A program made the position numbers and the translations under genes. Positions 15,301-59,100 of a stretch of 64,000 nucleotides of DNA are shown in pieces. This stretch comes from Chrysoperla carnea (taxonomy: Eukaryota; Arthropoda; Insecta; Neuroptera; Chrysopidae). How positions within the stretch are numbered: position 1 is the stretch's first letter; every line of letters begins with the position of its first letter. The notes beneath the pieces are model-generated. The model was not told where the DNA came from, ran no database searches, and saw only the letters and a program-made list of their open reading frames with translations. The stretch is from assembly GCF_905475395.1 (NCBI RefSeq), contig NC_058338.1:91373435-91437434 (forward strand), written 5' to 3'.

Positions 15301-18300
15301 GTCCTTTAAAATTACCAAATGCAATACAAATTTCGTTGTAAATAATACATTTTTAATGGTGAATTTTTTCTATCGCTTTGATTGTTGGTTTTTTTTTTTT
15401 TTTTTCAAGTGAAAATGTTTTAAAAAAATTTCAGTGCTGAACAAAGGTGTGTGCAGCCATTTATAATATAAAATTAATAATTCGAAGAATTTATTACTGA
15501 AACCAGTTATTAAAAAATTCTCATCTAATATTTGTATGACCATTACATTTGCTTTGTTGTTGTGTTCCGATAATTCCATCGAGTCCAATAAATAAAACAA
15601 AAGGAACTGCAAAAACCTAAAACTTTAGGGAAATAGGTTATATTGGCTGTCCGTAAAGAACAAACTTAGGTTATAGAGGTCATTGTGATACCAGATATGT
15701 GTTTTATCACCTTTTCCGCCGATAATTCCATTTATCAGCTCCTCAATTATTTTGAGAGGCTGAGTGCACCTCCTAACGCCCGTAGGCACTATACCAGCCC
15801 ATCACAACAATTAATTAAATTAATTTTTGTTGTAACAGCCGGAATCGAACCCGTTACTCTAGGCATACCGCGAATAGAATTGGTTACGATTTAACCAACT
15901 GAGCTATTAGGGTTGACCCTTATAAATTCTTCTATCGCATTCATGAATTAAATTTTTTTTAAATTTTCTAAATAATTGTGCACCTACAAATCTTGGATTA
16001 TTGATTTGATTGAATATTATATTGTTTAGTCGTGTCGTGGTGGTTGTCCTTGACACTAGATAAATAAATCAAAAGTCGGTCGAGCATCGAATAATGATGA
16101 ATCCATCTTCCAATGCAATTGATTTTATTTTATTTAATTGTATATTTACACGTTTGATTTTATTTTTGAAGGTTATAATCAATCAACTAACCTACTAAAT
16201 ACTGTATTCTATAACAGCTGCAATTTTGCTTCTTAAAAACTAGTACAATCATTTAACTACTAATCAATCAATATTATCTATAATTTATTAATTTAATTAA
16301 TTATTTTATTGATAATAATTGTAAATATTACAATAAAGGTAAATTACAGAATTTCTAACTTTGGTACCATCCGAAAGTACATAAAAAAACTGCAATTTAA
16401 AAGAATAAAAGTTAAAATCCGAGGATTTGCCTGAACTGTTGGAGCTGTTGAAATTTTTCAGAAAAATTTGTTTTTTTCACAATTGAGGTTATGTTTCGGG
16501 CTAAAATTACCACACTTTTCTAAGATCAAAATTTACAACTTTTTCCAGAATTGCAACTCAATTGCTTCATTTTTCAAAAAGTTATTAGAAAATGTTAGAA
16601 ATATGAGGTTATTGTGGTTTTCTTGACTTTTTGAGGTTATTTTGCTATGTTGAGGGTTCGATACCAGGCAAGGTCAATGCCATGAAGGTTATAAGAAGGA
16701 GAACGATCGCCATAGAAAATATTGTCCCCGAAATATGGATAAAATAAGTGAGGCGCTGCGACCGCTAAGTAGTATCAATAAAAGCGGGCTGTTGTGCGCT
16801 AATTTGAAATGATATATCAATTTGTACATTATGCAACTAACTTCATCTACTTGTACTCATAAACAGCTAACTTCGCAGATACTACTTCTTGATGACAGCG
16901 CGGCTGGTGGCTGAAAAATGAACTATAAATTCTACAAATTTTCAGGGACAGGTGCGCTAATGCTTTAGTACATAGCGATCTTTCTCCTTCTTTATAACCT
17001 TCATGGTCAATGCAGAAATTCATAACAAACAATTGTTTTTTCTTTATTCGCGTCAATCCGATCAATAGAAGCAGAGATATTCAAGAAAACGACACCAAAG
17101 AAAACAATGTAGAGATAAAAACCGCGTGCAGAAGGTCATTCGGTAGACTTACCAAACTATCTATGAAACATTTACAATTTCTTTTGTATGTGTGCAGAGC
17201 GTGTAAAAAAACAAGTGAAATTTACAAAATTTGAAAAACGTTCGACAAATTTTTAGGGTACGGAACCCTAAATTCACACTTGAAACTTATTTAAGAACAC
17301 AATCCATTAAATTTCCTTTTCCCTTGGAGCCATCTCCAAACTGAACCGATTTTGGGGATCATCGCCTATTTTTTAGTTGTTCCGGAAACGGAATTCTAAA
17401 TTCGCACATAGCTAAGAACACTCCATTGAATTACCTTTAAAACGAAACAAAAAAAATCAAGATCGATTCATCCGTTTAAGCGCTACGATACCACAAACAG
17501 GCAGACACACACACACATGCCGATCAAATTTATAACACTCCCTTTTTGGTTTGGGGTTTAAAAAAAACAAACAACTTTTATTCGAACATTCTTTTGTAAA
17601 CTCAATATAAATAAGGTATTTTAACAATTTATCATATTATTTCATTACTACAGAGTCAAATCAAATATTATAGAGGGTTTGAAATTTTCATAGAAAAGTC
17701 CTTGACCCCAAAAAACAAGTTCATTTATCTCAAAATAATTATAAATGCAAATTACTAATGTTTCTAGATAATTTTCCCTATAAAAAAAAGTACAGAGTGA
17801 TTCATTAAAAACCTTTCAAAACCTTATGTAACTTGTCATTTCCTATATTATTAAATACATTTAATTTGTTAATTCTTGAAAGTTAGAAATTCAAATTATT
17901 ATTCTTCCAATGGAAAAAAATCTCGCAACCTTTGCAAAATTTTAATTTTTCCATAAATATTCATTTTTAATATGTATTATATTTTTAACTTTAAGTACTC
18001 TTTAATTTTTCTAAAAATACAAAACAAAAATAATTTTAATTAGAAGAAAAGAGAGAAAGGAAATGTAGTAATAGAATGTATTTAAAAAAAAATTTTTATT
18101 CGAAACATTCTTTTGTAATCCCAATACAGATAAGGTATTTTAACAATTAATCATATTTCTCCAACAACCTTTTATAAAAAGCTCGTCCTTTCATCAAAAT
18201 ATTATAGAGGATTTGAAATTGTCATAGAAAAATCCTTGAACCCAAAAAAGAAGTTCATTTCTAAATAATTATAAATGCAAATTACTAATGTTTAATATTT

Positions 18301-21300: not shown

Positions 21301-23179
21301 ACATTCGTCTCCATTAACAGAAGCGCAGTTGGAACGGTTGTCACAATTAACTGAAGGCTATTCTGGTAGTGATTTAACGGCTTTGGCAAAAGATGCTGCT
21401 CTAGGTCCCATTCGAGGTAAGTCCAAAATTTGATTTCCTATTAAGGTATAAAGGGTGTCCTAAAATTAATACAGGCAGTAATTTCGACAGAAACATGGGT
21501 TTTTAACCAAAAGTTGTAAATTTTTAATTGATTCGGAAAATTTATAGCACCATGGTTTTTATTAAATGATGAATACATACTTGAAACTTCGCGAGTGAGC
21601 CTACCAAAATTTCCTCTACGGTTTTTTTCAAAAAGGCTACGTTTTTAAATGAGCATGTAGGCATCATACTTGAGTTATCGTTCTGAAAAAATGCAAACGC
21701 TGGCTTTCGGAGGAAATGTGACTTAAATATATGTCATTATTGCATTTAATCGAAAAAAAAATACGCTTAATGTTTTTCGATAATTGTAGGTCAAAGCCAT
21801 GAAAACAGGCGAATGTCCTCTATTGCCCTTGACAACTTTTGGCTAAAGCATTTTTCCGTAGATAACGTGTTTTCTTTCGATTAAATGCAACAATGACATA
21901 TTTTTAAGTCGCATTTGCTCCGAAAGCTATCGTTTTTCGAAAAAATGATTTAGATGAAAAATATTAGTCACGATCAACTTTCTAATTTAAAGTGTTATGC
22001 TATCTCTTATCTTTTAGAATCGAAATTGGCTAGAAGAATAAAATTTTTTGATATCTGCCTTAGTTTACGAAATTTCAAAATATCGAAAATTGAAAATTTT
22101 GTTTAATTATTCAGCTTTCGATATTTTGAAAATTACTCTAGATTTCGAAAAATTTTATTCTTACTTTTCGTATTATATTGTTAAGTTATAACATAATTCA
22201 CCATCAAATTTGAAATTTAATTTGTGTCCCCACTACCGTGCTCATACATCCTTATAATTAGTCGGGCACAGCCGGTTTTTGTTGTTTTCAATAATTTATT
22301 AAGGTTTTAATTTTAATTTAAATCATTTTTTTTAATTTCCATCGACTGACTAGTTTTGAAAAAATCTGTGAAAACAGATCATCCATCTACCGTTTTACTA
22401 TAAAACCAATTTTAAATATGCCACTTTTGAAGTCATTTATTTATTTAAATAATCAGGACCCCCCCCCCTCCTAAAATTTTCACAATTGATTTATACTTAG
22501 TCCAACTTCTTTAAAAAAAAATCAAGACTTTTCAAAATTGTCAAGGCGCTCATACATCCTTAAAGAAAACCGAAGAGCTAAATCCAATCTGATGTCAGAA
22601 CATTGGTTAACTAAAAAACGAGGTACTTAGGTGTATGGATTAAAATGGCCCATCCTGTCGATAATACTCTGTCCTCAAGGAGTAGGTGGTTACACAAGCG
22701 TCAGACTTCAAAAATCTCAGAGAGATAATCCAATGGTGTGGTGTTAAATCCCGTGATTTTTAGAGTCAACTATATTCTTTTCCTTCTGATTTTTCAAATT
22801 TGATGAAATTAAATCATTATTCTGACCATAGTTTCTTCAATGTACATTTTTAAAAACCCTTAACTACCACCTGTTACACACTGTCTTTGTTTTTTCAACA
22901 CTATAGGACAAATGATATAAAATTTAAATCCTGCTCTAATTTTCGGACACTCTTTACAAATCACAATGCATCATAGTTACATATATTCAAATAAATTTTT
23001 ATTTTTCCTACACAGAATTAGATCCAGAACAAGTGCGAAATGTTGATTTAAGTTCAGTGCGTAATATAACAATAAATGATTTTTTAGAATCATTAAAACG
23101 TATTCGTCGATCTGTTTCACCGCATAGTTTAATTGCTTACGAGAAATGGTCATTAGAGTATGGCGAAGTGACACTCTGA
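12321..23179 (+). CDS. spas: Spastin, microtubule-severing AAA ATPase, 6 exons
   Basis: Exons 12321-12789, 12861-13031, 14685-14855, 18831-19307, 20880-21416 and 23016-23179 all join in phase 1 and give 662 residues ending YGEVTL. Spastin hexamers cut microtubules by pulling tubulin tails through the central pore. A hydrophobic hairpin is at residues 43-76 ([20 protein letters not shown]...), the MIT domain at about 136-213 ([20 protein letters not shown]...[17 protein letters not shown]), a basic S/T/P-rich microtubule-binding linker follows ([23 protein letters not shown]), and the AAA module has Walker A GPPGNGKT at 427-434, Walker [12 protein letters not shown] with Asp486-Glu487, and [13 protein letters not shown] in the sensor/arginine-finger region. 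Length and order match insect spastin. The ATG at 12321 (MVRKV) resembles the fly start (MVRTK); two in-frame ATGs lie upstream at 12258 and 12294. Introns 2 to 5 are expanded by repeats. Confidence 0.95.
13495..14007. mobile_element. Long inverted-repeat element in spastin intron 2
   Basis: The ends are exact inverted copies, ATAGGGGAGCCCAAGAGG on the left and its complement on the right. Inside, paired motifs recur in inverted order, including CTCGAG and AAATTGCGATAG (left near 13625) against CTATCGCAATTTCTTTTT (right near 13845). The 513-bp size and lack of coding sequence indicate a foldback MITE. I could not define a clean target duplication. Confidence 0.7.
14994..15313. mobile_element. 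MITE-like element with GGACTCTC ends in spastin intron 3
   Basis: AATTTAAAAGGACTCTC at the left is matched by GAGAGTCCTTTAAAATT at the right, about 300 bp apart. The interior holds a weak hairpin around AGTAAAGAATGT (near 15075) and ACATTCTTTACT (near 15134). No coding sequence and no second copy in the window, so this is a tentative call. Confidence 0.4.
15832..15917 (-). repeat. tRNA-like SINE head in spastin intron 3
   Basis: The minus strand has a good A box (TAGCTCAGTTGG) and B box (GGTTCGATTCC) about 50 bases apart, as in tRNA promoters. The T stem and acceptor stem do not pair, so it is not a functional tRNA. A second fragment of the same sequence (ATACCG...GAATTGGTTnCG..TTTAACCAACTGAGC) occurs at 51118-51175 in a UBR3 intron. 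A tRNA-derived SINE is the simplest explanation. Confidence 0.55.
16430..17215 (+). repeat. Foldback-family arm (copy 1), split by a nested MITE
   Basis: Blocks such as GAGGTTATTTTGCTATGTTG, AGGGTTCGATACCAGGCAAG and ATAGAAGCAGAGATATTCAA recur, in one or both orientations, at 50457-51115, 52195-53095 and 59730-60362. Here the sequence is interrupted at 16681-17005 by a younger MITE; removing that and one target duplication restores AAGGTCAATGCAGAAATT, matching the uninterrupted copies. It lies in spastin intron 3. Confidence 0.7.
16681..17005. mobile_element. MITE, CATGAAGGTTATAA family, copy 1
   Basis: A 325-bp element with inverted ends CATGAAGGTTATAAGAAGGA and its complement, flanked by a perfect 8-bp duplication GTCAATGC (16673-16680 and 17006-17013). 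The 8-bp duplication fits hAT-type or P/Merlin-like transposition. A second, nearly identical copy is at 40721-41052, which implies recent activity. No coding sequence. Confidence 0.85.
17230..17560 (-). repeat. Dispersed insect repeat with CA microsatellite
   Basis: Reading the minus strand, it begins with TTAAACCCC..., ATGTGTGTGTGTGTCTGCCTG and GGTATCGTAGCGCTTAAACGG, a sequence type I recognise as widespread in insect genomes. A related copy in the opposite orientation lies at 62500-62790 (AACCCCTGACGCAAAAAAGAGG-like start and GTGGCATCGTAGCTCC). Class not assigned. Confidence 0.5.
17565..18545 (+). repeat. Two-copy tandem duplication, about 480 bp unit
   Basis: The segment 17565-18050 is repeated at 18083-18545 with many substitutions and small indels. 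Shared blocks in order include ATTCTTTTGTAA, AAGGTATTTTAACAATT, ATTATAGAG, TAATTATAAATGCAAATTAC, TACAGAGTGATTCAT and GTCATTTCCTA. Divergence suggests an old duplication inside spastin intron 3. Confidence 0.7.
19370..19735 (+). repeat. Dispersed repeat, second copy of the 10.5-kb element
   Basis: Same order of blocks as 10535-11060, shorter by internal deletion: TACCCTGTATATATGAAATA, ATCAAGGTATACTAATTTTA, TTCAATTGGGTCTT, CAACTTTTGTTTGAAATATT and TTGGTGTCCATTTTC. It lies in spastin intron 4; the remainder of that intron (to 20879) shows no gene. Confidence 0.6.
21450..22600. repeat. Dispersed repeat patch in spastin intron 5
   Basis: Blocks GAAACTTCGCGAGTGAG, TTTTTAAATGAGCATG, ACTTTCTAATTTAAAGTGTT and CCAATCTGATGTCAGAACAT recur in the same order at 42650-43420. 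A shorter inverted pair (TCGATTAAATGCAA near 21880 and its complement near 21745) lies inside. It looks like a decayed foldback element; no coding sequence. Confidence 0.5.
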
Positions 23180-34905: not shown

Positions 34906-35340
34906 TTATACTTACTAAACATATAAATAAGTATATGTCATGAAGCATATAGGCATTTTAAAAGCTTCTATTCAAAACGATGTATTATATATTTAAATAA
35001 TTGCTTTTTATGTACTTGATTAGTATTTGATGATGATTAGTTTTAGGTATCAAATTAATAAACAAATGCAATAAACTTTATAAACAATATACATTGATTT
35101 ATTGTATTTGTAATTTCATTTATTTTTCAGAGATATGAGAACAAATATTATAATTTTGGAGATTATCGACAAAATAATAATTTTTTCTCTAAACTTTTAA
35201 AAGAATTATCTTATTTTAGGTTTACAAAACCTATGTTTTTATTAAACTATTTAAACTGATGTTTATTTATGTTATTTATTTTTATCAATATTAATATTTA
35301 TAATGTAAAGTATTAAGTTAATTATAAGATTACATATAAG

Positions 35341-35415
35341 CCGATTAGCTGAGAGAGTATAGCACTTGACTATGAAGCTAAAGCACGCTATAGTTCGTAT
35401 CCTGGTGGGATTAAC
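35341..35415 (+). repeat. tRNA-like SINE head
   Basis: Plus-strand A box TTAGCTGAGAGAGTA and B box AGTTCGTATCC lie about 45 bases apart, with a pseudo-anticodon loop between. The anticodon and T stems do not pair fully, so it is a SINE head, not a tRNA gene. Confidence 0.55.
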
Positions 35416-35839
35416 ATTTTTACTTTTAGATTAAATAAAATTTTTCTGAAAATCGTTATATATTTTAAATTTTGTTTTATTTTTAAAATTTTCTATCCTA
35501 ATTTTTATTTTAGAACAAAATTATCAATTAATTAATTATTTAGTAAAGGTAAGTAAGTAGTAAGTTAATTATGTGGTATCACATAAGCTGGGTGGCTGTG
35601 TGGGTATATCACTTCCGTCTGAAACAAAGGTACGGCGGTTCGTATCCTGGTGTGGTTAAATTTTTACATTAAAATAATTGAATTTTTCCTGTTGTTTAAA
35701 TTTTCCACTCTTTTTATAGTTAAACCCGCCCTCTTGTCATAAATCATGTTAATTATACGTATGTCATAAATCACTATTATTTCAGGGGGTGGGAACTTAA
35801 ATAATCATAAATATTCTTTAAAATCATAAATCATTTTTG

Positions 35840-36235
35840 AATAGGAAAACATGTAATAAGGTTTATTTCACTCATATTCTCCTATTACAAAATATTAAAA
35901 TTGTAGTACTAAAATTAAAAAATAGCTTGGGTACGCTAAAATTTGATACTTTTTAATAGGAGAATATGTCCCATAGTTGATCTCACTCATATTCTCCTAT
36001 TACAAAATATTAAATTTTGTAGTTCTAAAATAAAAAAAATGCTTGGTTACGTTAAAATTTGATACTTTTTAATAAGAGAACATGTCCTATAGTTTATCTC
36101 ACTCATATTCTCCTATTACAAAATTTAAAAAAAATACGTATTTTGCTTGCCTTTTTGTTGTGCATGCTAAAATTTATTCTTGTTAAATGAAATTTCATAA
36201 GATTTTGTAATAGGAGAACATGTTATTTCATAAAA
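35840..36235. repeat. Tandem repeats of about 125 bp with inverted CTCCTATTA motifs
   Basis: Three imperfect units each hold TCACTCATATTCTCCTATTA followed about 75 bases later by its near-complement (TAATAGGAGAACATGTC). Adjacent motifs are thus inverted pairs, able to form a series of hairpins. Two more units occur in the duplicated block at 37230-37510. Confidence 0.7.
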
Positions 36236-36304
36236 ACAAAAAAATTAATTATGTTAGTAAAATTGATTTCTCCGGCATAATAATTGCTTAATTAATTAAA
36301 AATT

Positions 36305-36390
36305 AATCGGGACAATGCCGGATACGAACCGAGGGACTGTGTAACCCAAGACTAGTGTTCTACCCACTATTCCAACTTTGGCATGTTTTA
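36305..36390 (-). repeat. tRNA-like SINE head in duplication unit 1
   Basis: The minus strand reads GTTGGAATAGTGGGTAGAAC (A-box region) and CGGTTCGTATCCGGC (B-box region). Similar minus-strand heads are at 37690-37770 and 38000-38085. Pairing is too poor for a working tRNA. Confidence 0.55.
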
Positions 36391-36830
36391 ATTAACAATA
36401 ATGTAATACACATACCTTTTACTCACCTATTTTAAGTAAACTTGTTTTCTTAAACTTAGTTATTATTTTCTTTTACTAACCTTTTTTATTAAAATTATCC
36501 ATTCCGTATTTCTTTTTACTTATCTTTTTTCAATAAACTTACCTATAAATGAATAATTGTAGTAATATTTTGTTAAAAATTTAGGTTCTGTTTGATATTC
36601 CTGAAATCGATGTAAAGGATAAAAGATAAAGGTAGGTATAATATTGAATATTAATAATTAAACCAGAAATACATATTGATAAAAACGTTATTTTATTATT
36701 ATATATATTTGTACATATTTCATCAAAAATAAATATGAATGAAAAAAAATGGCATTTTTATACAGTATAAAATCAATTTCCGGATTACGTTTTCATTTTT
36801 TCTAAATTAATATAAATAAATAAAAATCTT

Positions 36831-38720
36831 TATAAATTTTAAATTTTGTTTTTATTTTTTAAATTTTCTATCCTATTTTTTATTTCAGAAAAAATTATCA
36901 ATTTTGTTATCACACAATTACAATCACAAAATTATCAAAATTATAAATAATTTAGTAAATGTAAGTATAGATAATTATATGATAACACATAATCCAGTTA
37001 GCTGTGTGGATATAGCACTTGCCCATGAAGCCAGAGTAACCTGGTTCGTATCCTGGTGTAGATAATATATTTACTTTTAAATAATTGAATTTTTACAGTT
37101 GTTTAAATTTTCCACTCTTTTTATAGTTAAACCCGCCCTCTTGTCATAAATCATGTCAATTATATATATGTCATAAATCACTATTCTTTCAGGGGGTGGG
37201 AACTTATAGTGATAAATATTCTTTAAAATCATAAATCATTTTTGAATAGGAAAACATGTAACAAGGTTTATCTCACTCATATTCTCCTATTACAAAATAT
37301 TAAAATTGTAGTACTAAAATTAAAAAATAGCTTGCTTACGCTAAAATTTGAAACTTTTAAATAGGAGAACATGTCATATAGCTAACCTCCATCATATTCT
37401 CCTATTACAAAATATTAAAAAAATACTTATGCTTGCTTTTTGTTGTTTGTTAAAATTTATTCTTGTTAAATGAAATTTTAGAAGATTTTGTAATAGGAGA
37501 ACATGATATTTCACAAAAAAAAAGGAATTAGTTTAGTCCCACTTTCTTAATTATATCATAACTCACTCTTCTGTCAGGGTGGCCGGAATTAAAATAATAT
37601 AAATCTTACTTATTTGTCGCTTATGGTTCACCATAACAATTATCTAAAAAAGTGACAATTTATCGGTATAACTTATTTAATTAAAAATTTATTCGACACA
37701 ATATTAGATACGAACCGAGGTTCTCTATAACCAAAGCCGATTATGCTAACCACTACCCCATCTTATACAAATCAATAATGTTATTATATAAAACTTTTAC
37801 TCCCCTTTTTCTAATAAACTTATTTTCTTAAACTTACTTATATTACCTATGAATAATTAATTGTTATTTCATAAAATAAGAAAAAAAGTAATTATGTTAG
37901 TCCCACCTTCCTACTTATGTCATAAATCAATCTTCTGTCAAGGGGTGGGAATTAAAATAACATAAAATATACTCTCTTACTTAATTAATAAAAAAAATTT
38001 CGGGGCAAAGCTAGATACGAACCGACGTGCTTTGAAACCGGAGACGACTGAGCTAGCCACTACTCCACTTTGGACATATTAGGTTAATCAATAACGTACT
38101 ATAAATAACTTTTACTCAACTTTTTACTATAAACTTATTTCCTTTCACTGACCTTTTTTCATTTAACTCATATTAAACTTACCCATCATGAATTTCTTTT
38201 TACTTACCTTTTTTTCAATAAACTTACCTATAAATGAATAATTGTAGTAATATTTTGTTAAAAATGTAGGTTCTGTTTGATATTCCTGAAATCAATGTAA
38301 AGGATGAAAGATAAAGGTAGGTATAATATTGAATAATAATAATTAAACCAGAAAAATTGATAAAAACAATATTTTATTATATATATTTATTTGTACATTC
38401 CTTGTAGAAATAAATCTGTTCTGGAAGTAAGAATATTTAATTTGAAATTCAGAAAAAGAATATGTACAGTAAAAATATCTCTGAAAAAGTCTGAAAATAT
38501 CAAATAAATTATTAATCAATCATTTAATGACAGTAAATGGTAATTGATTGAGACTCTTTCGGAAGAAATATTCTGACTTCCAGAACAGATTTATATTGCA
38601 CAAGGGATATTTCACCCAAAATAAATATGAATGAATAATAATGGTTATTTTAAACAGTATAAAATTATTTTTCGGGATAACGTTCTCATTTTTTCTATAT
38701 TTTCAATAATTTTATCCTGA
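36831..38720 (+). repeat. Segmental duplication, unit 2
   Basis: Matches unit 1 in order: TTTTAAATTTTGTTTTTATT start, tRNA-like segment at 36985-37062, CCCGCCCTCTTGTCATAAAT, CTCCTATTA repeats (37230-37510), and the TAGGTTCTGTTTGATATTCC block (38260-38350). It is longer than unit 1 because it carries two SINE-like copies (about 37540-37780 and 37890-38090) and a MITE at 38399-38607. Confidence 0.7.
38399..38607. mobile_element. MITE in duplication unit 2, with an empty site in unit 1
   Basis: About 209 bp with inverted ends: AAATAAATCTGTTCTGGAAG at the left and CTTCCAGAACAGATTTATAT at the right. In unit 1 the corresponding site near 36710-36735 reads TTGTACATATTTCAT without the insert; here TTGTACAT and ATATTTCA are separated by the element. 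This paralogous empty site proves insertion after the duplication. The target duplication appears to be only about 2 bp (AT/TA). Confidence 0.8.
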
Positions 38721-38760
38721 ATTTTTTTAACAGTTCTTTGTTAAATTTTATTTTGAATTT

Positions 38761-38935
38761 CCTTGGTGGAAAAAATATTTGAAAAAAAGATAAGTCTTAG
38801 AAAAAAAAATATTAAGAACTCTGAATAACTCTGAATTAGACTAGTCCGAATACGTTGAGAAATTCAAAGTTCCTAAGACTTTTTCATAATTTCTTATTTT
38901 TTCTTCAAATATTTTTTCCACCAGAGTTTGTTGAA
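38761..38935. mobile_element. MITE, CCTGGTGG family, copy 3
   Basis: About 175 bp, starting CCTTGGTGGAAAAAATATTT and ending AATATTTTTTCCACCAG. Arms share AAGTCTTAG and ACGTTGAGAAATTC. It sits just downstream of the minus-strand zinc-finger gene. Confidence 0.75.
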
Positions 38936-39053
38936 CATGTTCTCCTAATATAAATATTTTAAAAAAAATCATGAATAATTTTATAACATTTTGCAATAAG
39001 AGCATTAATTAAATAACGGCGATGTTATTTTTTTACAAATTTGTTTCTACTTT

Positions 39054-40607
39054 TTATCGATTGTGAATACGTTTATGTTTAACTAAATTACTTTTCTTAT
39101 TAAATGTTTTATTACAAACATCACATGAAAATGATTTCTCTCCGCTGTGAATACGTTTATGTCTAACTAAATAGCCGTTCTGAGTAAATGTTTTATTACA
39201 AACATCACATGAAAATGATTTCTCTCCGCTGTGAATACGTTTATGTCTAACTAAATAGCCTTTCTGAGTAAATGTTTTATTACAAACATTACATGAAAAT
39301 GGTTTTTTTCCGGTGTGAATACGTTTATGTACAACTAAATTATGTTGATAAGTAAATGTTTTATTACAAACATCACATGAAAATGATTTCTCTCCGCTGT
39401 GAATACGTTTATGTACAACTAAACCACCTTTATGAGTAAATGTTTTATTACAAACATCACATGAAAATGATTTCTCTCCGCTGTGAATACGTTTATGTCT
39501 AACTAAACCACCTTTCTGAGTAAATGTTTTATTACAAACATTACATGAAAATGGTTTCTCTCCGCTGTGAATACGTTTATGTACAACTAAACCACCTTTA
39601 TGAGTAAATGTTTTATTACAAACATCACATGAAAATGATTTCTCTCCGCTGTGAATACGTTTATGTCTAACTAAACCACCTTTATGAGTAAATGTTTTAT
39701 TACAAACATCACATGAAAATGATTTCTCTCCGCTGTGAATACGTTTATGTACAACTAAACCACCTTTCTGAGTAAATGTTTTATTACAAACATCACATGA
39801 AAATGATTTCTCTCCGCTGTGAATACGTTTATGTCTAACTAAATCACCTTTCTGAGTAAATGTTTTATTACAAACATCACATGAAAATGGTTTCTCTCCG
39901 CTGTGAATACGTTTATGTACAACTAAATCACCTTTCTGAGTAAATGTTTTATTACAAACATCACATGAAAATGGTTTCTCTCCGCTGTGAATACGTTTAT
40001 GTACAACTAAATCACCTTTCTGAGTAAATGTTTTATTACAAACATCACATGAAAATGGTTTCTCTCCGCTGTGAATACGTTTATGTCTAACTAAATCACC
40101 TTTCTGAGTAAATGTTTTATTACAAACATTACATGAAAATGGTTTCTCTCCGCTGTGAATACGTTTATGTTTAACTAATTCACCTTTCTGAGTAAATGTT
40201 TTATTACAAACATCACATGAAAATGATTTCTCTCCGCTGTGAATACGTTTATGTCTAACTAAATCACCTTTCTGAGTAAATGTTTTATTACAAACATCAC
40301 ATGAAAATGATTTTTCTTCTAAAACAGTTTCATCTTTAATAATTAGTTCTGTATGTAATTTTTGTTCAAGTTTAATGTTTTCATAATTAATTGTGTACAA
40401 TTGTTTATCATTTTCATCACTAACAGGTTCATGTTTTACACTCACAACACTATCACTATCATTGCTGCCTTCTTCTTCATTTGTAATGTGTCCACCTTCC
40501 ATTAAAATAGTTTCATCTAATATTTCACTTTTAATAATTAGTTCTGTATGTAATTCTTTTTCAACTTTAATATTATCTTTATTAATAAACAAATAATTAT
40601 TCGCCAT
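39054..40607 (-). CDS. C2H2 zinc-finger protein with 15 near-identical fingers
   Basis: A single-exon gene of 517 residues, ATG at 40605-40607 and TAA at 39054. Residues 1-97 are acidic and carry two copies of an NIKxExxLHTELIIK motif (12-26 and 77-91) with several psi-K-x-E sites; no ZAD or KRAB domain is visible. Residues 98-517 are fifteen 28-residue C2H2 fingers with SGEK(P/S) linkers and a common core FSCDVCNKTF...LV.HKRIH. Fingers are almost identical at DNA level (84-bp tandem repeat); differences fall mainly at helix positions -1, 1, 2, 3 and 6. It is most likely a sequence-specific nuclear DNA-binding protein, target unknown. It is head-to-head with the related gene at 41761-42486 about 1.15 kb away. 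No intron is needed. Confidence 0.92.
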   Translation of the reverse strand: MANNYLFINKDNIKVEKELHTELIIKSEILDETILMEGGHITNEEEGSNDSDSVVSVKHEPVSDENDKQLYTINYENIKLEQKLHTELIIKDETVLEEKSFSCDVCNKTFTQKGDLVRHKRIHSGEKSFSCDVCNKTFTQKGELVKHKRIHSGEKPFSCNVCNKTFTQKGDLVRHKRIHSGEKPFSCDVCNKTFTQKGDLVVHKRIHSGEKPFSCDVCNKTFTQKGDLVVHKRIHSGEKPFSCDVCNKTFTQKGDLVRHKRIHSGEKSFSCDVCNKTFTQKGGLVVHKRIHSGEKSFSCDVCNKTFTHKGGLVRHKRIHSGEKSFSCDVCNKTFTHKGGLVVHKRIHSGEKPFSCNVCNKTFTQKGGLVRHKRIHSGEKSFSCDVCNKTFTHKGGLVVHKRIHSGEKSFSCDVCNKTFTYQHNLVVHKRIHTGKKPFSCNVCNKTFTQKGYLVRHKRIHSGEKSFSCDVCNKTFTQNGYLVRHKRIHSGEKSFSCDVCNKTFNKKSNLVKHKRIHNR

Positions 40608-40720
40608 TTTGTTTAATATTTAATATTATTATCACGAAAACTTATTTATCAAAAGGTTCAAGCATTAATTCACAACTCCAGTAAACATAACCTACAATGA
40701 CAGCTGAACAGACTATAAAC

Positions 40721-41052
40721 CATGAAGGTTATAAGAAGGAGAACGATCGCTATTGAAAATATTGTCCCCGAAATATGGATAAAATAAGTGAGGCGCTGCG
40801 ACCGCTAAGTAGTATCAATAAAAGCGGGCTGTTGTGCGCTAATTTGAAATGATATATCAATTTGTACATTATGCAACTAACTTCATCTACTTGTACTCAT
40901 AAACAGCTAACTTCGCAGATACTACTTCTTGATGACAGCGCGACTGGTGGCTGAAAAATGAACTATAAATTCTACAAATTTTTAGGGACAAGTACGCTAA
41001 TGCTTTAGAGTTTAGTACATAGCGATCTTTCTCCTGTTCTATAACCTTCATG
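40721..41052. mobile_element. MITE, CATGAAGGTTATAA family, copy 2
   Basis: A 332-bp copy nearly identical to 16681-17005, including GAGGCGCTGCGACCGCTAAG and AAAAGCGGGCTGTTGTGCGC. It lies between the two divergent zinc-finger genes. Flanks (CTATAAAC, GTATATAT) give no clear 8-bp duplication. Confidence 0.85.
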
Positions 41053-41067
41053 GTATATATATACATA

Positions 41068-41760: not shown

Positions 41761-42486
41761 ATGTCAAATTATTCATTTGAGCAGATATTAATTAAAGAAG
41801 AAGATATTAAAATTGAACATAATTTAAATACAGAAACAGTAATTAAAGATGAAATATTAGAAGAAAGTGATCCAATAGAACATCAACTGAGTCAAGATTC
41901 TACGTTAATCGAAAATGAAAACATTAAAATTAAACAAGAGTTGGATACAGAAACAGTAATTAAAGATGAAATACTAGAAGAAAATGATCTAGTAGAACAT
42001 CAACTAAGTCAAGATTCTACGCTAATCGAAAATGAAAACATTAAAATTGAACAAGAGTTGCATACAGAAGTGATTATAAAAAAAGACAATGTTAGTGATG
42101 AAAAACCTTATTCTTGTGATATTTGTAAAAAACAATTTCGAGCAAAGTGCAATTTATATGCACATAAGCATAAAATTCATGCAGAAAAACGTTATATATG
42201 TGATGTTTGTAATAAAAAATTTGCTCGGGAACCTACTTTAGACAAACACAAACGAATTCATACAGAAAAACCCTTCTCATGTGATGTATGTGAAAAAAAA
42301 TTTAACCAGAATCACTTGCTAACTTATCATAAACGAATTCATACTGGAGAAAGGTGCTTTTCGTGTGATCTTTGCAATGAATCATTTGTATATCGTCACA
42401 GACTGGCTTCCCATCAACGTATTCATACTGAAAAACCTGCGTTTGTGAAAGAATATTTGGCCAAAAAAGCAGTTAAGTTAGAATGA
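41761..42486 (+). CDS. C2H2 zinc-finger protein with four fingers and repeated acidic N-terminus
   Basis: A single-exon gene of 241 residues; a poly(A) signal AATAAA follows at 42541-42546. Residues 15-53 and 54-92 are a 39-residue direct repeat (NIKIxxELxTETVIKDEILE... HQLSQDSTLIENE), with a third partial copy at 93-109. The repeats hold psi-K-x-E sites (IKEE, IKIE, IKDE). Four C2H2 fingers follow at about 117-230: SCDICKKQF, ICDVCNKKF, SCDVCEKKF and SCDLCNESF. The first has a longer His spacing. The N-terminal motif is shared with the minus-strand gene at 39054-40607, so the two are paralogues, but the fingers here are diverged, not homogenised. Likely a nuclear DNA-binding protein of unknown target. 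Confidence 0.88.
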   Translation: MSNYSFEQILIKEEDIKIEHNLNTETVIKDEILEESDPIEHQLSQDSTLIENENIKIKQELDTETVIKDEILEENDLVEHQLSQDSTLIENENIKIEQELHTEVIIKKDNVSDEKPYSCDICKKQFRAKCNLYAHKHKIHAEKRYICDVCNKKFAREPTLDKHKRIHTEKPFSCDVCEKKFNQNHLLTYHKRIHTGERCFSCDLCNESFVYRHRLASHQRIHTEKPAFVKEYLAKKAVKLE

Positions 42487-50151: not shown

Positions 50152-53100
50152 TCACAGTGCGTCTCTATGCCAAACCCATGTTTTTTTAGTATGATCAAAA
50201 CGATGTGTCAGCCATTGTTGCTCCAATAGTTGATATCGATCCTGACTTAAATGTAGTGGTTTACCACGCCTATGAGACAAACAAAAAAAGCACTCGTTGT
50301 AAAATAATAAATATTAAAGGTGTTTTTAATCAAGGGTTTATGTCCCCAATCTGCATTTAATATTAAAGTCAAAATCGATTATATACCGATATCGCTTGAA
50401 ATGAAGGACCCTGACTGAATCCGAATGTGAAATTATTCATTGTAAATAGTGGGATAAATCTGCCGGTTTTTTATATTGAATTCGAAAATTTTGTCCAAAT
50501 GGCTATTTTTTTTTTGCAATAGAGTTCTTTTGTTGTAAAAAAAATAGAAAAGGATTTTGCCGGTTCCGGAACGATCCACGCGACCTTCTGCACGCGGTTT
50601 TTATCTTTATATTGTTTTCTTTGGTGACGTTTTCTTGGATATCTCTGCTTCTATTGATCGTATTGAAAAAAGATTTGTTTGTTAAGAATTTTTGCATCGA
50701 CCTTGCTTTTTATCGAACCCTGGACATAGCATAATAACCTCAAAATCTCAAGAAAACCGCAGTAATCTCATATTTTCAACTTTCTCTGATAACTTTTCGA
50801 AAAATGAAGGAATTGAATTGAAACTTTGGAAAGAGTTTTAACTTATGATAATAAAAAATGGTGGTTTTAGTCCGATACATAAGCTCAATGTTGAGAAAAA
50901 CGAATATTTCTGAAAAATTTCAACAGCTCGTACAGTTCACGCAAATCATCATATTTTAATTTCTTTTTTTTTTTTTAAATTGCAGGTTTTTTAATGTAAT
51001 TTCGAATAGTGCCAGCGGTTTTTTTTTCAAAACTTTTTCTGTATTTTTTACAACGGAAGACACCTTTAAAAAAATTAATCTTTTTAAAAAATTTACCGAA
51101 TTTATTATCAAAATCTATGCATACCGTGTACGGAATTGGTTTCGCTTTAACCAACTGAGCGACTGTTCATTTTTAAAGTTGGTTAAATATGTAACAATTT
51201 GAGGCCAGAACGATTTTTATTTTGGTCAATTTTTAAAGTTACACATTTACTCATCCACAAATAAAATGTCAGACGAAGAAGACGTCTGATATTTCTGATA
51301 TTTCAAAAGAAGACGTCTTGAACCAACCAGATCCATCAAAGAGGAAAAAGTTTGTTTCAAATAAATACATTCTCAAAATTGAAGTCAGATTTTCAGATAT
51401 TTTTCATCGATGTATTTAGGGGCCATTCATTAATTACGTGAGCATAATTTTGATGATTTTTGTTTATTTTCTTTTGTAAGGAACAATTTTACGAATTTCT
51501 ATATAAAATGTAGTTAACACAAATACGAATTACCAGTCATTATTATGTTACTCTTTCTCTAAGTCATTATTTCCAACCCGACTTTTTTTTCTATTATGTC
51601 TTTTGACGATCGAGCTTTCATTTTTCCTCAAAGAAGAAAAATTTTTTAGTGAAAGAGTCACCAAATTAGCTCCCAACTTCGTAAAATATATTAATTTTAG
51701 GCGTCATATTAATTTTCACTTTTAATACTGAAAGCGGAACCAAAATAAATGAAATAAAAATAAAATTAGACTTACTTTAAATCACGATCTTCTTCCTCAA
51801 AATCATCTAAATATAATGAACCCCAAAGACATGCACGTCGTCCGCGTATAACAATAATGTATGTGGATGTGACCACTAAATAAATACCAGTACCACCGCC
51901 ACAATCAATGCTGTGCTGTACAGCTTCACATACATTCTGTGTTTTACAACAACCTTGTTTTAAACATACAACTGTACCACATAATAAACATACACTTGTC
52001 TCTTGTGGAACGGAATGACATTGACTGCACTGTCTCTCATGATAATACTGTAACAAAAAAAATTCAATTAGTTCATCGAAATTAGTCGAAGAATTTAAAA
52101 AAGAGAACTATTAAAGATATCGAAATGCGACTTTTAGTTCTTTTATAGGGAAATGAATCAATAAAAATTGTTTCTATTCTAGAAACTTCTTCAAATAAAT
52201 TAATGAAATGGCTAATTTAAAAACAAATAGGTTTCTTTCGTTGTAAAAAACACAGCAAAATAATTTTCCGGTTCCAGAACGATCCGCACGACCTTGTGTA
52301 CGTGATTTTTATCTCTACATTGTTTTCTTTGGTGATGCTTTATTGAATTGTTTGTTAAGAATTTTTGCATCGACATTGCTTGCTATCGAACCCTGAACAA
52401 AGCAAAATAACGTCAAAATCTCAAGAAAACCGCAGTAACCTCATATCTTCAACTTTATCTGATAACTTTTCGAAAAATAAAGAAATTGAGTTGAAAATCC
52501 GGAAAAAGATGTAACTTATGATCATAAAAGGGTGTTAAATTTTAGCCCGGCATATAACCTCAATTTTGAGAAAAACGAAAAAAATTTCAAAAAATTTCGA
52601 CAGCTCGTATAGAAAATCATCGGATTTTAACTTTTTTTTTAAAATTGTGTATCGGACTTAATTTAACCACCCTTTGATTATAGGTTACATCTTTTTCCAG
52701 GATTACAACTCAATTCCTGCATTTTTCGAAAGGTTATCCGATAAAGTTGAAAATATGAGGTTACTGCAATTTTCTTGAGATTTTGAGGTTATTTTGCTAT
52801 GTTCAGAGTTCGATAGCAAGCAAGGTCGATGCAAAAATTTAATCTATAATTTAACAAACAATTATTTTTTTTATTCGTCTTAGACCAATCAATAGAAGCG
52901 GAATTTTTAAGAAAGCGGCACCAAAGAAAACATTGTAGAGATAAAACCGCGTGCGGTTCGTTCCAGAACCGGAATACTCTTCTTCTGTAATTTTTACAAC
53001 GAAAGAAACATATATCAAACAAAATTAACCATTTCCCAAAATTTACCGAATTTATTATCAAAATCCGGTAGATTTATCCAACTAATATAGTATGGTCGAC

Positions 53101-56100
53101 AAGCACCATTTTGTGACGAACCTGATTTAGTCTTGGAAAATTATGATCAAAGTATCATTTGATTCGGAATTATGCTTAGAAACTTTTTGGACACAAATGA
53201 AGAGGTTGCGGTTAAAACCTCCCCTTTTTTGTTATTAAACTGTTTATAACTTTTGTAAGTTTTACCACAACCTCTTCAAACTTTATCATAGTTTTACGAG
53301 AATTAAATCAGGTTCGCCTCAAAATGATGTTTGTATACTAAACTAATCGTGCATTTTTATCCTATAAAAGTTAAAAAAAAAACTGTGAACTTACCGTAAA
53401 TATTTTTTCATATTCTTTAGGTAAACGTAATAGTCGTGGTGGATGCCAAATAACATGCTGATCTATTAAAAAGTTTCTTGCTGCAATTTGACTACGTGCT
53501 ACAAATGCTGAGAATTGATTACACCATAGACGTGGCGTTTCCAATCGTATTTCTGGACTTGCCCAATTCAATGCAACTGCCGCATTAAAACAATTCCAAT
53601 CCATACCTTCTGTTACTAATTCTAAATAATATACAAGCCGAACGAATTCACTTTGCGGTGATCGTACTTCGGGCAATGATTGCTGATATAAGTGATATTT
53701 TAACAAAGCTGCAATTCGTAAAAATGGTAGACATAATTTTTGTACCTGAAAAGTAAAAAAAATACATTTTTAAAGATATTTAAAAAAAAAATTTTTCTTA
53801 CTATTCTATTTGCTTTAATCTAGATTCATGTCATAGAATTTTAGTTTTATGAGCTCTGTTTTTGATAAAGAGAGCTGTGTGTCGCGTAGATTGTCTTAGA
53901 ATCGAACCAAAGACTTCTAGATCTTTGTTTTAGAACTGCATTTTTAGAGAGATGTGGGCTGAGTACAGTTCTAAAGTCCAAAGTTTTAGCTAAGATTTTC
54001 TAAAGCTCTTTTTTTGAGTTATCAGATTTCTTTAGACATAGCTGTAAATAAATCAAGTTCTATGTACTAGGTAAATTACTTTTAATTTTTGCTATGGAAT
54101 TAACTAGACAAATTGATAATTTAATAGTGTTATGTATTCAAATATTTCAATAAGCTTGTAATAATTTTGAGTATAGACCGATATAACGAAAAATTTAATA
54201 ATTCGAATTTTTGGTGTGGAAATTGGTGTATGGGTATACAAAAAATATTCTAAGCAATTTTTTTTAAATAATTTTTTTCGATATCTCTAACCATCTCTGG
54301 CGCTATGCAAAATATTAAGAATCGACCCTATTTGTCAAATTGTAAAAGGCTGAGTTTAAAGTTCAGATTTCGGTTAAGTATCTTAAAAAAGGTGACCCTT
54401 CACCTTGTATGACTGTCCAAAATTTCAAATCAATATTCCTATAAATAACGAAAATGTAAGGGTGTTTTCATCTTAAATGCTACACACTGTTATAATATAC
54501 TATAAATATGAACATACCTGTATTTCTAATGACTGAATATTGAATTTAACAGCACCAGTACTACATGAAGACGTTGTACTCTGTGAACTACTTCCACAAT
54601 TCTCATCTTCGATATACAATTCACTTGTATTAAATGATTCAATCACTGAATACAGTGTATCATACAATGATATATTATTGTTAGCTGCTGTTGATGAAGA
54701 AGATGATGATGCTGGTGAATGCATTGATGATGAAGAGGACGCTGTTGCAGACGAACACGTTGCATAATGATTTGGTTGATGATGAATGGTTGATGTTGAT
54801 GGTTTTTCAGCTGGTTGTAAAGCTTTACATTCGTTTACATGTGATTCAAATGTTTTAGCACGACATTTATTAATAACATGTTGACGTTCACGATTTGTCA
54901 TTGAACATGTCAATTGAGCAACTACTTGATAATATAATAAATTATATAATGTTTTTACTACACTAGAAAAATAAGCTGGAACCAAAGAAAAAAATTTATG
55001 ATTATTTTTAGAAAAGTGTTTAAATAATAATTTTAATAGAGGAATTTTTACATTTTTTTTTTGCGTAATATGGCCAATTCGACATCAGGATTATCCCCTA
55101 TTAAACGATTTATACGTAACATAAATGGGGATCCGGGATTGAGTAACTAACACGTAGATCAACGGGGTGTTCCATGAGTAATGGACACCCTTGTTGGATC
55201 AGGTAGAAAATAAAATTCTATAACGAAAAGTTCTCTTTCATTTTTTGGTCCGATGCACTTACACCCACCATTTCCTATACTTACACCCACCCCTTCCTAC
55301 TCATTCTCGCAGTTTCTTACTATTTTAGCCTCCCCCCACTGTCTTTTCGCTGTAGCGCGCTTCTGATTGGCTGCTTATTTTAATTAATATCTAATTGTTC
55401 GTGGAGACTTTTCATCTTAGAATTTTATAGAATTTAAAAAAGTATTAATAACTCTGAATAACTCTGAATTAGATTAGTCCGAAAACGTTGAGAAATTCAA
55501 AGTACCTAAGACTTTTTCAGAATTTCTTATTCTTTCTTCAAATATTTTTTCCACCAGGGATAACAAGGTTCTACCTGATACAACAAGGGCGTTCGTTACT
55601 TCTGGGACACTCTGTATATACCAAGAGTGGTCATGAAAATCGACTTTTAAAATTCCCTGGATAGTTCAGATATGCCAGTATATTTTATCATACTTTTCTT
55701 AGATTTTTCATAAATTCAGGCAGGTTAAAGCCACACTGGTACAATTTTTGGCCAAAAGTACGTCAAATGGCCAAGATTTTTTATGATTTAATCAATAAAC
55801 TAAAAAAAAAAACTGTCAACAAAAATTTGTATCACAGTTTTAGACGAATATTTTCTAAAAATTGTATGAAATCCATTAGAGAAATTGGCCTTTCTTGTTG
55901 TGTTTAGATGTTTTTTTAGAAAATATGGATCTAATTATTAAATGAATCCGATTCACGTTTTTTTTTTTTTTTTTTTTTTTTGATCAAAAATACTAATTTT
56001 ACCAAGTTTTATCGAAATTGGACACAAAAAATTCGTATGGCCTTTGTAATTTTTTATAAAAGATAGCAACGTCATCAAAAAGTTAATTTACAATCGGTAG

Positions 56101-59100
56101 GATTTTAGATATTTATTTTGTGTTTGAAATTAGGTAGGAATGAAAGATGTCTGAGAGCGGTTGTGAAAATCCGCAAAAGTTGTAAAAATTGTTAAATTTA
56201 AAATCATTTTAAGATAATTTTTATAAAATTAATTTTCGGATTTACGAAAAAATATACCGAAAAAAATTTATGTAATAGTGTCCCATTTTTAAACGTAAAG
56301 ACTAAAAACTTCAGAACCCAACCAAGTCCTCTGTAAATTTTCGGTCTATTTTTCCCGATTACTTTAATTTTCATGCTCTTTTAGCAATATAAATTGTAAT
56401 TTTCAGAAAGTTTTACCTTTGCTAACACTGTCCCAGATATTAATCTAATAATTAAATAAAACGCATTTAAATTATTTGAGTGTGGTTGTAATTTTAATAT
56501 GATTTAGTTTTATAGCTAAAGAGAGTAATTTTAATTTGCCAGTCAGAAATTTGGTTGCTTTACTAGCGAAAATTCATCGTTAATTAAAGCAACCGCTCTC
56601 AGATGCAAGACATATTTTATTCCTTCCTAATTTCAATAAAGAAAGAAATATCCGAAATTCAGCCATTCTAAAATAAACTCTCGAAAAAGTTTCCAGCTCC
56701 CGTACTACTTGACTACTTTGACTACTCCCGTAGTCAATATTCTAGGATAATTCCCATTTTTGAGATTTCTGACTATTTTGGTACTTTTTCTGCACCTTTT
56801 TTGAAAACAACCCTTCATTTGTAGACATGGGATGCCTCTGGTGGGTAGGTTCCAATATAAGCAAATGAGGAATTTTGTCGAAGTCTGGAGCCAAGTTTTT
56901 GTTAATTACAATTCTAACAGGATTATTTGGTCGTGAAAATCGTTTAATATTTAATTTCGAGGATTAAACTTACCTTGATCTAAGTGAAGAGGTAACAATA
57001 AAATAAATTGAATTAACAATGCTGAAGGATCTTTAAGTAACAATGGTACTTCACGTTCAATTGTTGTAAGTGCCATCGGTGAGGTAGTGGGTGATCCTTG
57101 TACACCAGTTATTTGTGTCCATATTTGCCATGTTGGCCATTGAGCTAAGACACGTGCATGTACAGCCAATACATGTAACAATGGTACAATACAATCACGT
57201 TTTGGCATTAACGATAATGTTGGATGTGTATTATTATTATTTGTTGTAGTGTCCGTACACAATGAACCGCCACGTTGTATTAATTCGATTTCTAAATTTG
57301 TTCGTGCTATTGATGTAACAAATAAAAATAAACTTTGATGCATTGGTGGTGCCACCTTTTGTTTGAATTTTAAATGTGTACTATTTGTCATATCTTCCAT
57401 TGATTTACCCATTGCTTCGGCTAAATTTGATGTACTCTAGAAAAAACAAAACAATTATTCGGATTAAATGCAAAATGATGCGTTTTGTCGATCCAGTTTT
57501 AAAAGCAGATTTTGTACTTACCGTAGGTTTTTGATTTTCTTTTAAGAAATTTGTTAATTCTGATAAAATACCATCCATCGTTCCAGGTCTAGATCGCACA
57601 ATTGCTGTACATTCTCCTAATTGTGGTGATAATGGTAATACAGAATTTGCTAATTGTCTACACAACGGGCACAAATATTCACCCCTAAAACAAAAAAAAT
57701 TACGATATTTTAAATTCAATACAAAATAATTCATAATTTCACAAAATCGAATTATTCAAAAAGTATGATATTTCAAAGTTACAAATAATCTTTAATTGCA
57801 AAAAAAATTTACTCTATGTAAAAAGTAACACAAACTCCCAGTAATACAAACAGCTATATCTCGAACACAAAAGATTGGATCTGAATGAAATATACAGGCA
57901 GTTGACATATGTTTAAAACTCGATAAATATATTTAATCGAGGAAAATGCTTCAAACGAAAAATATTAGTTTCAAAAGGAAACATCTTATACCGGCATCGA
58001 ATTCCATCTAAGTTTTCAGGTTCAATTAAAACCTCACTCTAATTCATAACTGACAAACATAAGATGAATGCTTTAAATTAGAAATTGTTCTTTATAAATA
58101 CGCAAACATTTTTTTTAAACCGAATAGTTTAGACTGTAATTTTTTCGAAGTGTGCCTAGATTTCGCAGAAACAATTATATGAAATAAAAATTATGATACG
58201 ACAAAACAATTTTGGGTAAAAATTTTCACTCCGCCTTTGCCTAAACTGTACGATTTGCGGAAAAATATTTCGAATAAAAATGTTACTTTTTTTAATCAAT
58301 AACAACTTTCTAATTTCAAGTGTTCATATATCGATTATCAGTTATGGAGTAGAGTGAACTTTTCATTGAGATTGAAAACCTAGGTCAGTTTAATATCTGT
58401 GAAAGATGTGCGCCTACACACCCAACATTTTTCGTTTGAAGCATTTTTATCGATAAAAGTTATTTTAAGAGTTTCAAGCATATGTCAACTTAAAAAAGAA
58501 GAAGACACTCTGTATATGATCCGATAGCTTGTTCTAGTTTTTGAATCAATATCTCAAACATTTTTCATCCCTTAATATTTTATGCGCAAGGCTGAAATTG
58601 AGTATGTGCAGTCGAAAGTTTGTTTATTTCTCTTTAAAATGCGCTTATATTGATCCTTATACTTCTTAGACCGAGTTATTTTCCGACAAACAAAATAGTC
58701 GATATACCTGTTTGAAATTTCGAGAAAATTTAAAACTTGCGTTTTTTTACGGGGTTGTATATCTGCTCAAAATATCGTTTCCAAAGGTCTTGAATAATTG
58801 GGATTTTGAAAAAATATATATAACAAAACTGTTTTTATTTTTTCATGATAATTTTAAAGTTACAGGCAGTTTAAAAGAACTTTTCAATAGAGAAACGAAA
58901 ACGCCTGACAAAAAAAAAATGTTTCTAAAAGATCGTGTAACGTCATAATGTAAATTAATAATTGCAGTGTATACTATTCAATTAACATTACTACGCCACA
59001 ACGATGTTATACGAACGTTTTTTTTTTGTAGGGCTTTTTCGTTTCTCTTTCGAAAAGTTCTTTTAAAACTGCCTGTAACTGTAAAATTATCATGAGAAGA

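What the first reader, a model, noticed from the sequence alone, without database searches (positions are those of the whole stretch)
39054..40350. Zinc-finger array homogenised except at DNA-contacting positions
Fifteen 28-residue fingers are nearly identical in framework (FSCDVCNKTF...LV.HKRIH), yet they vary at helix positions -1 (Q/H/Y/K), 3 (D/E/G/Y/N) and 6 (R/V/K). Recent unit duplication or gene conversion with diversification confined to specificity residues is the pattern known from PRDM9 and from rapidly evolving zinc-finger families. It suggests a fast-evolving DNA-binding gene, perhaps targeting repeats, which are abundant nearby.
Basis: partly seen in the sequence, partly recalled or inferred. 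Interest (0 to 1): 0.7.

Follow-up and report, generated by a model that had tools for sequence, protein, structure and literature searches.

The report
Jumping zinc-finger gene with diversifying fingers
In the green lacewing genome a zinc-finger gene is carried inside a jumping piece of DNA, and its copies, nearly identical elsewhere, differ strongly in the number and DNA-contacting residues of their fingers, which points to fast evolution of what they bind.

Summary
ORF 39054-40619 (-) has fifteen 28-residue C2H2 fingers with an almost constant framework and variation concentrated at helix positions -1, 3 and 6. Seven of 11 minimal changes among 13 units are replacements at contact codons, against 1.3 expected (P = 2e-5).

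The gene belongs to a young dispersed family: 31 ORFs chosen by N-terminus, 330 fingers, 174 helices. The six closest copies, on four chromosomes, differ by at most 3.6% at silent N-terminal sites, yet carry 15, 10, 7, 6, 2 and 2 fingers.

The gene is cargo of a 6.1-kb composite DNA transposon (34939-41052) built on two copies of a common ~330-bp MITE. In four other copies the outer ends are flanked by exact 8-bp target-site duplications; the window copy has 7 of 8. A related finger gene shows a similar structure.

The assembly matches the green lacewing Chrysoperla carnea (longest scaffold 139,979,878 bp, 337 scaffolds).

PRDM9-like finger evolution is supported; PRDM9 membership is not. A SUMO-linked repressor of repeats is inference. 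No transposase was found.

The parts
34939..41052 (-). Composite DNA transposon (6114 bp) carrying the zinc-finger gene; ends CATGAAGCATATAGGC and (reverse complement) CATGAAGGTTATAGAAC
   Evidence: outer ends defined by comparison with copies on C3 and C4
34931..34938 (.). Left target-site duplication GTATATGT
   Evidence: 7 of 8 identical to the right one
41053..41060 (.). Right target-site duplication GTATATAT
40721..41052 (-). Full-length MITE forming the arm upstream of the gene (332 bp); its inner flank CTATAAAC does not match its outer flank (5 of 8)
   Evidence: 39 other scored genome copies at 92-95% (1514 first-look candidates, 40 scored)
34939..34968 (-). Remnant of the other arm; more of this MITE is present in other copies
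39054..40607 (-). Zinc-finger gene, single exon as read, 517 aa (ATG at 40607)
40308..40607 (-). N-terminal region, no Pfam family over its cut-off, five psi-K-x-E motifs
39063..40307 (-). Array of 15 C2H2 fingers
35155..38898 (-). 3' part of the mobile unit, shared at 96-97% over its whole length with three copies; same end point (query 3746) in six other copies
41761..42486 (+). Neighbouring, diverged zinc-finger gene (4 fingers by eye, fewer over the Pfam threshold) outside the element, head to head
16681..17005 (.). Solitary copy of the same MITE, exact 8-bp duplication GTCAATGC (control)

Best explanation
A C2H2 poly-zinc-finger gene became enclosed between two same-orientation copies of a small non-autonomous transposon (8-bp target duplications). 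A transposase acting on the outermost ends moved the whole block, a macrotransposon, to new sites. After or during dispersal each copy's finger array grew or shrank by unequal exchange of 84-bp units, and replacements at contact residues were retained, so that copies with nearly one N-terminus acquired different contact residues and presumably different DNA targets. Shown: anatomy, target duplications, dispersal, differing arrays, excess of contact replacements. Inferred: unequal exchange as the cause of array change; that selection caused the excess; that the N-terminal psi-K-x-E cluster is sumoylated; and that the proteins are sequence-specific repressors, most likely of mobile or repeated DNA. 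I put the functional step at about 0.35.
For: Exact 8-bp duplications at the outer ends of C3:75.75M, C4:2.68M, C4:3.24M and C4:6.66M, each a different sequence. The inner flank of the window's full arm does not match its outer flank (5 of 8). The junction of unit and right MITE occurs at 6 places genome-wide, backward control 0. For the pair L010/L012 the upstream match stops at both outer ends, and for window/L013 at the window's outer end. The first 950 bases of 3' flank differ by only 0.4-2.4% between copies (one copy compared over 254-280 sites only), N-terminal pS 0-0.036, while finger numbers are 15, 10, 7, 6, 2, 2 and 3 in the copy that lost its N-terminus. Contact excess. In 330 family fingers the third base of helix codon 5 is T in 330 of 330 and of codon 4 is A in 327 of 330, between hypervariable codons 3 and 6, which argues against a local mutation hot spot. 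psi-K-x-E/D motifs: 5 against 0.73 expected, P = 0.0002.
Against: The window's own duplication is 7 of 8 and AT-rich, and its right arm is only a remnant. For C5:59.8M and C4:10.9M only one end was seen; C4:1.54M lacks the gene and its left match is one base out of frame beside a poor end (CATGAAACCC); a ninth junction, C2:4.21M, was not examined. No transposase with these ends was found: in 12 P-element-type loci only four loose matches with up to two edits; hAT loci could not be fetched. The psi-K-x-E motifs sit partly in an internal duplication, so they are not independent. Some helix variants may be imported (unit 12 is 1 base from fingers on C5). Family-wide, silent variation is high at codon -1 (pS 0.56, pN 0.54) and in the linker (third bases of codons 21, 23, 26 at heterozygosity 0.34-0.43), so arrays of the family as a whole are not silent-site clones. 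N-terminal pN/pS 0.63 is only weak evidence of constraint. No expression or binding data.
Confidence: 0.72

Rival explanations
1. Ordinary segmental duplication or ectopic recombination between scattered MITEs spread the gene; the MITEs are bystanders.
For: MITEs are very common here and often nested near these genes; one copy (C4:2.68M) lost its N-terminus at a MITE end. Other family members (L015/L019) share a unit with different boundaries and no clear duplication.
Against: Four exact 8-bp matches at the outer ends, each with a different sequence; the chance of one such match is about 5e-5 at 30% GC (own arithmetic).
Confidence: 0.07
2. Neutral concerted evolution: the array is a young minisatellite and contact variation is drift plus import of old helices by gene conversion.
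For: Very young array (mean framework difference within the array 1.32 of 69 sites against 5.64 to other genes); unit 12 nearly identical to fingers on C5; the number of silent changes alone is not significantly low; QKGDLVV also occurs in one gene on C5.
Against: Changes concentrate at contacts (P = 2e-5); helices beginning QKGG, HKGG and QKGY occur only in this gene of the 31; the nearest outside unit for most units is QKGELVR of the sister copies.
Confidence: 0.2
3. The finger copies are decaying passengers with no function.
For: Of eight core copies examined one lost the N-terminus and one the gene; two have only 2 fingers; a further family member, L033, has a stop inside its N-terminus.
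Against: Six of the eight core copies have an ORF open from ATG to stop; N-terminal pN is below pS over 24 genes; contact excess.
Confidence: 0.2
4. A PRDM9-type meiotic hotspot specifier.
For: Same mode of finger evolution.
Against: No SET/PR or KRAB domain in the ORF; many dispersed copies rather than one gene.
Confidence: 0.02

Closest known systems
ZF271-like / APEZ zinc-finger proteins of Hemiptera (Panfilio et al. 2019, PMC6444547, passages read)
   Same: Large young insect families, 3-45 tandem fingers per protein, no other known domain, ongoing diversification, array shuffling
   Different: A number of those genes are described in tandem clusters; here a lacewing, dispersed copies as transposon cargo, and an N-terminal psi-K-x-E cluster
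FiNZ-ZNFs and KRAB-ZNFs (Wells et al. 2023, PMC10547256, abstract and passages; Emerson and Thomas 2009, PMC2604467, abstract)
   Same: N-terminal region shared by a family, positive selection tied to DNA binding, lineage-specific expansion
   Different: No KRAB; target repression not shown here; in the text of Wells et al. the terms tandem duplication, segmental, dispersed, retrotransposition, unequal crossing and gene conversion do not occur, so I found no account there of how copies spread
PRDM9 (Oliver et al. 2009, PMC2779102, abstract)
   Same: Concerted evolution and positive selection altering number and sequence of fingers
   Different: No SET/PR domain; a multi-copy family
Ac macrotransposons of maize (PMC9910405, passages read)
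   Same: A block ending in element termini moves as a unit; 8-bp target duplication
   Different: Here the arms are MITEs, the cargo is a finger gene, and five natural copies with both ends were seen (four exact duplications, one 7 of 8)
ZAD-ZNF family of insects
   Same: Expanded insect C2H2 genes; zf-AD is frequent in this genome (150 scored matches, a capped list)
   Different: No ZAD in this ORF

Membership tests
C2H2 poly-zinc-finger genes | tandem C2H2 fingers with 5-residue linkers | tested here: met
   PF00096 with 15 stretches, PF13465 with 14
PRDM9 | PR/SET domain N-terminal to the fingers | tested here: not met
   Pfam scans of ORF (best 25 of 28 families shown) and N-terminus; unseen upstream exons not excluded
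PRDM9 | excess replacement at finger contact residues | tested here: met
KRAB-ZNF | KRAB domain | tested here: not met
ZAD-ZNF | N-terminal zf-AD domain | tested here: not met
ZF271-like/APEZ | many tandem fingers and no other known domain | tested here: met
ZF271-like/APEZ | common ancestry with the hemipteran genes | not tested
   no hemipteran sequences were compared
Macrotransposon (composite DNA transposon) | two copies of one element flanking cargo | tested here: met
   in the window copy one arm is reduced to a remnant
Macrotransposon (composite DNA transposon) | target-site duplication at the outermost ends, not across one arm | tested here: met
   outer 8/8 in four copies, 7/8 in the window; across the window's full arm 5/8
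Macrotransposon (composite DNA transposon) | mobilised by the arms' transposase | not testable with these tools
   no autonomous partner identified
hAT or P superfamily | 8-bp target-site duplication | tested here: met
   shared by several superfamilies (recalled), so not diagnostic
hAT or P superfamily | transposase gene with the same terminal repeats | tested here: inconclusive
   12 of 65 P-type matches had loci; only four loose matches to the ends in them; hAT loci not fetched

The most novel reading that the evidence does not exclude
Composite MITE transposons repeatedly pick up and spread zinc-finger repressor genes in this insect (two branches of one finger family show identical outer octamers), so that transposition itself supplies new copies whose fingers then diversify; the proteins, with a SUMO-acceptor N-terminus in place of KRAB, may police repeats or regulate their own carrier.
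Probability: 0.22. Interest if true: 0.82.

Novelty: new variant of a known kind. Interest (0 to 1): 0.62.

Why it matters
Finger families of this sort are usually explained by local duplication under an arms race with transposons (general view, recalled). Here the finger gene travels as transposon cargo, and copies differing by about 1-2% in their flanks already have different arrays. That gives a very recent series in which the birth of new DNA-contacting residues can be followed, and it offers a candidate effector (SUMO acceptor cluster) for insect zinc-finger families that lack KRAB.

Tried and rejected
Retrocopies: rejected for the core copies, since several kb of 3' flank and the MITE arms move with the gene. 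Hypermutation of the helix: disfavoured by nearly fixed third bases in helix codons 4 and 5. PRDM9, KRAB and ZAD membership: no such domain. P-element transposase as the partner: 12 loci checked, four loose matches to the ends with up to two edits, no convincing pair; inconclusive. The L015/L019 unit: shared boundaries at both ends, but no target duplication other than a T run and no clear element type. Organism: PF00494 gave two neighbouring matches at one place, so it did not point to aphids (the reading is recalled); zf-AD is abundant; identified by exact scaffold length and count in a paper. Prediction of DNA targets from a recognition code was considered and not run, because I judged it too weak for these helices. 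Literature: the listings of searches, which show only the best rows (15 of 258, 20 of 94, 15 of 75, 7 of 7, 8 of 8, 8 of 34, 1 of 1, 4 of 4, 10 of 37), and 72 (no paper) showed no title about a finger gene as macrotransposon cargo; the library lacks most subscription papers. One odds change after checking: the gene in L049 is a related branch (55% identical N-terminus), not an unrelated family, so the novel case went from 0.25 to 0.22.

Full report
Organism. The genome has 337 contigs and contig C1 has 139,979,878 bases; the Chrysoperla carnea paper gives 337 scaffolds and a longest scaffold of exactly that length (first of two parts of the text read). C3 and C6 and the total are slightly shorter here than in the paper (94.12 against 94.41 Mb, 38.56 against 38.62, 559.5 against 560.2), C1, C2, C4 and C5 agree. 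The window is chromosome 2, 91,373,435-91,437,434. The assembly is from PacBio HiFi, 10X and Hi-C data.

Observation. The ORF 39054-40619 (-) holds 15 fingers in perfect 28-residue register. Numbering of helix positions follows the usual Zif268 scheme, recalled. Counting the fewest changes that explain the codons, 13 of 25 (all units) or 7 of 11 (13 units) are replacements at positions -1, 2, 3, 6; random placement gives 2.87 and 1.26. Nine replacements elsewhere in the full set, and three in the reduced set, show that it is a concentration, not a strict confinement. The number of silent changes by itself is not unusual. In pairwise terms the window array has pN 0.354 and pS 0.098 at contacts, against pN 0.030 and pS 0.018 elsewhere. 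The nearest finger outside the gene for units 1-3 is QKGELVR, finger 2 of three sister copies, 1 or 2 bases away, so the array grew largely from one finger; unit 12 was kept or imported, being 1 base from fingers on C5.

Family. The N-terminus finds 150 scored matches (910 candidates), the best 20 at 87-100% identity, itself included, on C1 to C5; the array finds 55 matches from 40 scored candidates (590 in the first look). These are lower bounds. Of 48 finger ORFs in the loci, 31 were chosen by N-terminal motifs: 330 fingers, 174 different helices, 1 to 25 fingers per ORF. L014, counted as 7, has one 56-residue gap that may hide a degenerate finger. For the N-terminal codon comparison 7 of 31 were dropped for missing or long N-termini, leaving 24: pS 0.063, pN 0.040. 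Within 28 arrays with at least five fingers the first two bases of contact codons have heterozygosity 0.30-0.68, while the third bases of helix codons 4 and 5 have 0.03 and 0.00. This internal control argues for selection rather than a mutation hot spot. Over all 330 fingers contacts have pN/pS 1.86, the rest 0.63. Results that cut the other way: codon -1 alone has pS as high as pN; helix codon 1 is as variable as some contacts; framework codons 2, 5, 9 and 11 and linker codon 24 vary; silent sites in the linker vary freely. So the near-clonal framework is a property of this one array and its closest sisters, not of the whole family.

Mobile unit. A 3.7-kb stretch downstream of the gene is shared at 96-98% with copies on C4 and C5 and ends at one point in six copies. 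The first 950 bases after the stop differ by 0.4-2.4% between seven copies (C4:2.68M over 254-280 sites). At the sides lie copies of a MITE of about 330 bp. Read in gene orientation, the two MITEs point the same way. The outer ends carry exact 8-bp duplications in four copies: CTATCTAT, GTGTACAT, GTACTGAC, CTTTAGTC; in the window 7 of 8. For C5:59.8M and C4:10.9M only one end was seen; C4:1.54M keeps a matching octamer one base out of frame beside a poor end, and between that end and the shared 3' part there is no gene. C2:4.21M, with a right junction, was not examined. As controls, 9 pairs of facing MITE ends were found in the data: 4 match 8 of 8; the other five are the window's own arm (5 of 8), the two arms of L049 (2 and 3 of 8), one pairing of non-adjacent ends in L074 (2 of 8) and one in L090 (3 of 8). 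The junction between unit and right MITE occurs at 6 places, five exact and one with a mismatch, none for the backward control. The window element is 34939-41052; its right arm is reduced to a remnant, with 186 bases at 34969-35154 that the six copies compared do not have there.

A second case. L049 (C2:94.68M) has a 14-finger gene of a related N-terminal branch (55% identity to the window's N-terminus) between two 251-bp elements with the same ends as the MITE; the outer octamers are both ATATTAAC, the inner ones CATCAACC and ACTGGGAC. Against it: part of its upstream flank is similar to the upstream of a relative, L048, and to the downstream of L053, so the site is repetitive and a recombination history is possible.

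Function. No known effector domain was found. The N-terminus has five psi-K-x-E motifs (pattern psi-K-x-E/D), 0.73 expected in shuffles (P = 0.0002); of 9 other finger ORFs tested 6 reach P of 0.01 or less and 3 do not, and the neighbour has 7 against 0.85. Several of these are related to each other, and the motifs lie partly in repeats, so the tests are not independent. The motif as SUMO consensus is recalled. A review reports that SUMO acts in transposon silencing in flies (passages of PMC9406493). Hence a SUMO-linked repressor is my best guess, at about 0.35. Insects lack a direct ortholog of the KRAB partner KAP-1 according to Panfilio et al. (passages), who ask what other partners such proteins use.

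Verdict. Finger evolution of this type is known. The carriage of the finger gene by a composite MITE transposon, with very young sister copies that already differ in their arrays, is to my reading a new variant.

Noticed in passing
L049 (C2:94678505-94682670), 654-904 and 2997-3247: A related finger gene lies between two elements with the same ends as the MITE whose outer octamers are both ATATTAAC while the inner ones differ.
   Followed up: partly
window 41761-42486; L059 3-1526; L060 4746-7001: Three insertions (one of them, C4:10.9M, with only one end seen) lie within about 0.9 kb of another, different finger gene; too few to judge a preference.
   Followed up: no
L091 1330-2928 (C1 near 138.89 Mb): An open bacterial-type cytochrome oxidase subunit I gene, 95% identical to that of Rickettsia tamurae, sits near the end of chromosome 1: endosymbiont-derived insertion or scaffolding of symbiont DNA.
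   Followed up: partly
L015 and L019 (C5:70.08M, C5:5.86M) with L090 and L089: Two older family members share a unit with other sharp boundaries, 3' end ...GGTGTTTCTAGTATAT, without a visible target duplication; possibly another kind of mobile element.
   Followed up: partly
L068 (C4:2.68M): In this copy a MITE end abuts the finger array and the N-terminus is gone, leaving 3 fingers, while the outer 8-bp duplication is intact.
   Followed up: partly
all 330 family fingers, helix codons: Third codon bases are nearly fixed (position 1 A 324, position 3 T 308, position 5 T 330, position 6 A 317 of 330) even where a third-base change would alter the residue; position -1 is an exception.
   Followed up: partly
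window 41806-42069: The neighbour gene's N-terminus contains 2.3 copies of a 117-bp tandem repeat that multiplies its psi-K-x-E motifs.
   Followed up: no
L074 and C4:6.66M right flank (L073): Some copies of the element lie close to what look like ordinary genes (for example a coding start about 100 bases from the end at C4:6.66M), as is common for DNA transposons; read by eye only.
   Followed up: no
window 18785-21433 (+) and 51772-63273 (-): Exons that look like spastin (recalled; no Pfam match for the first exon) and a UBR-type ubiquitin ligase (PRT6_C in two exons) flank the finger region.
   Followed up: no
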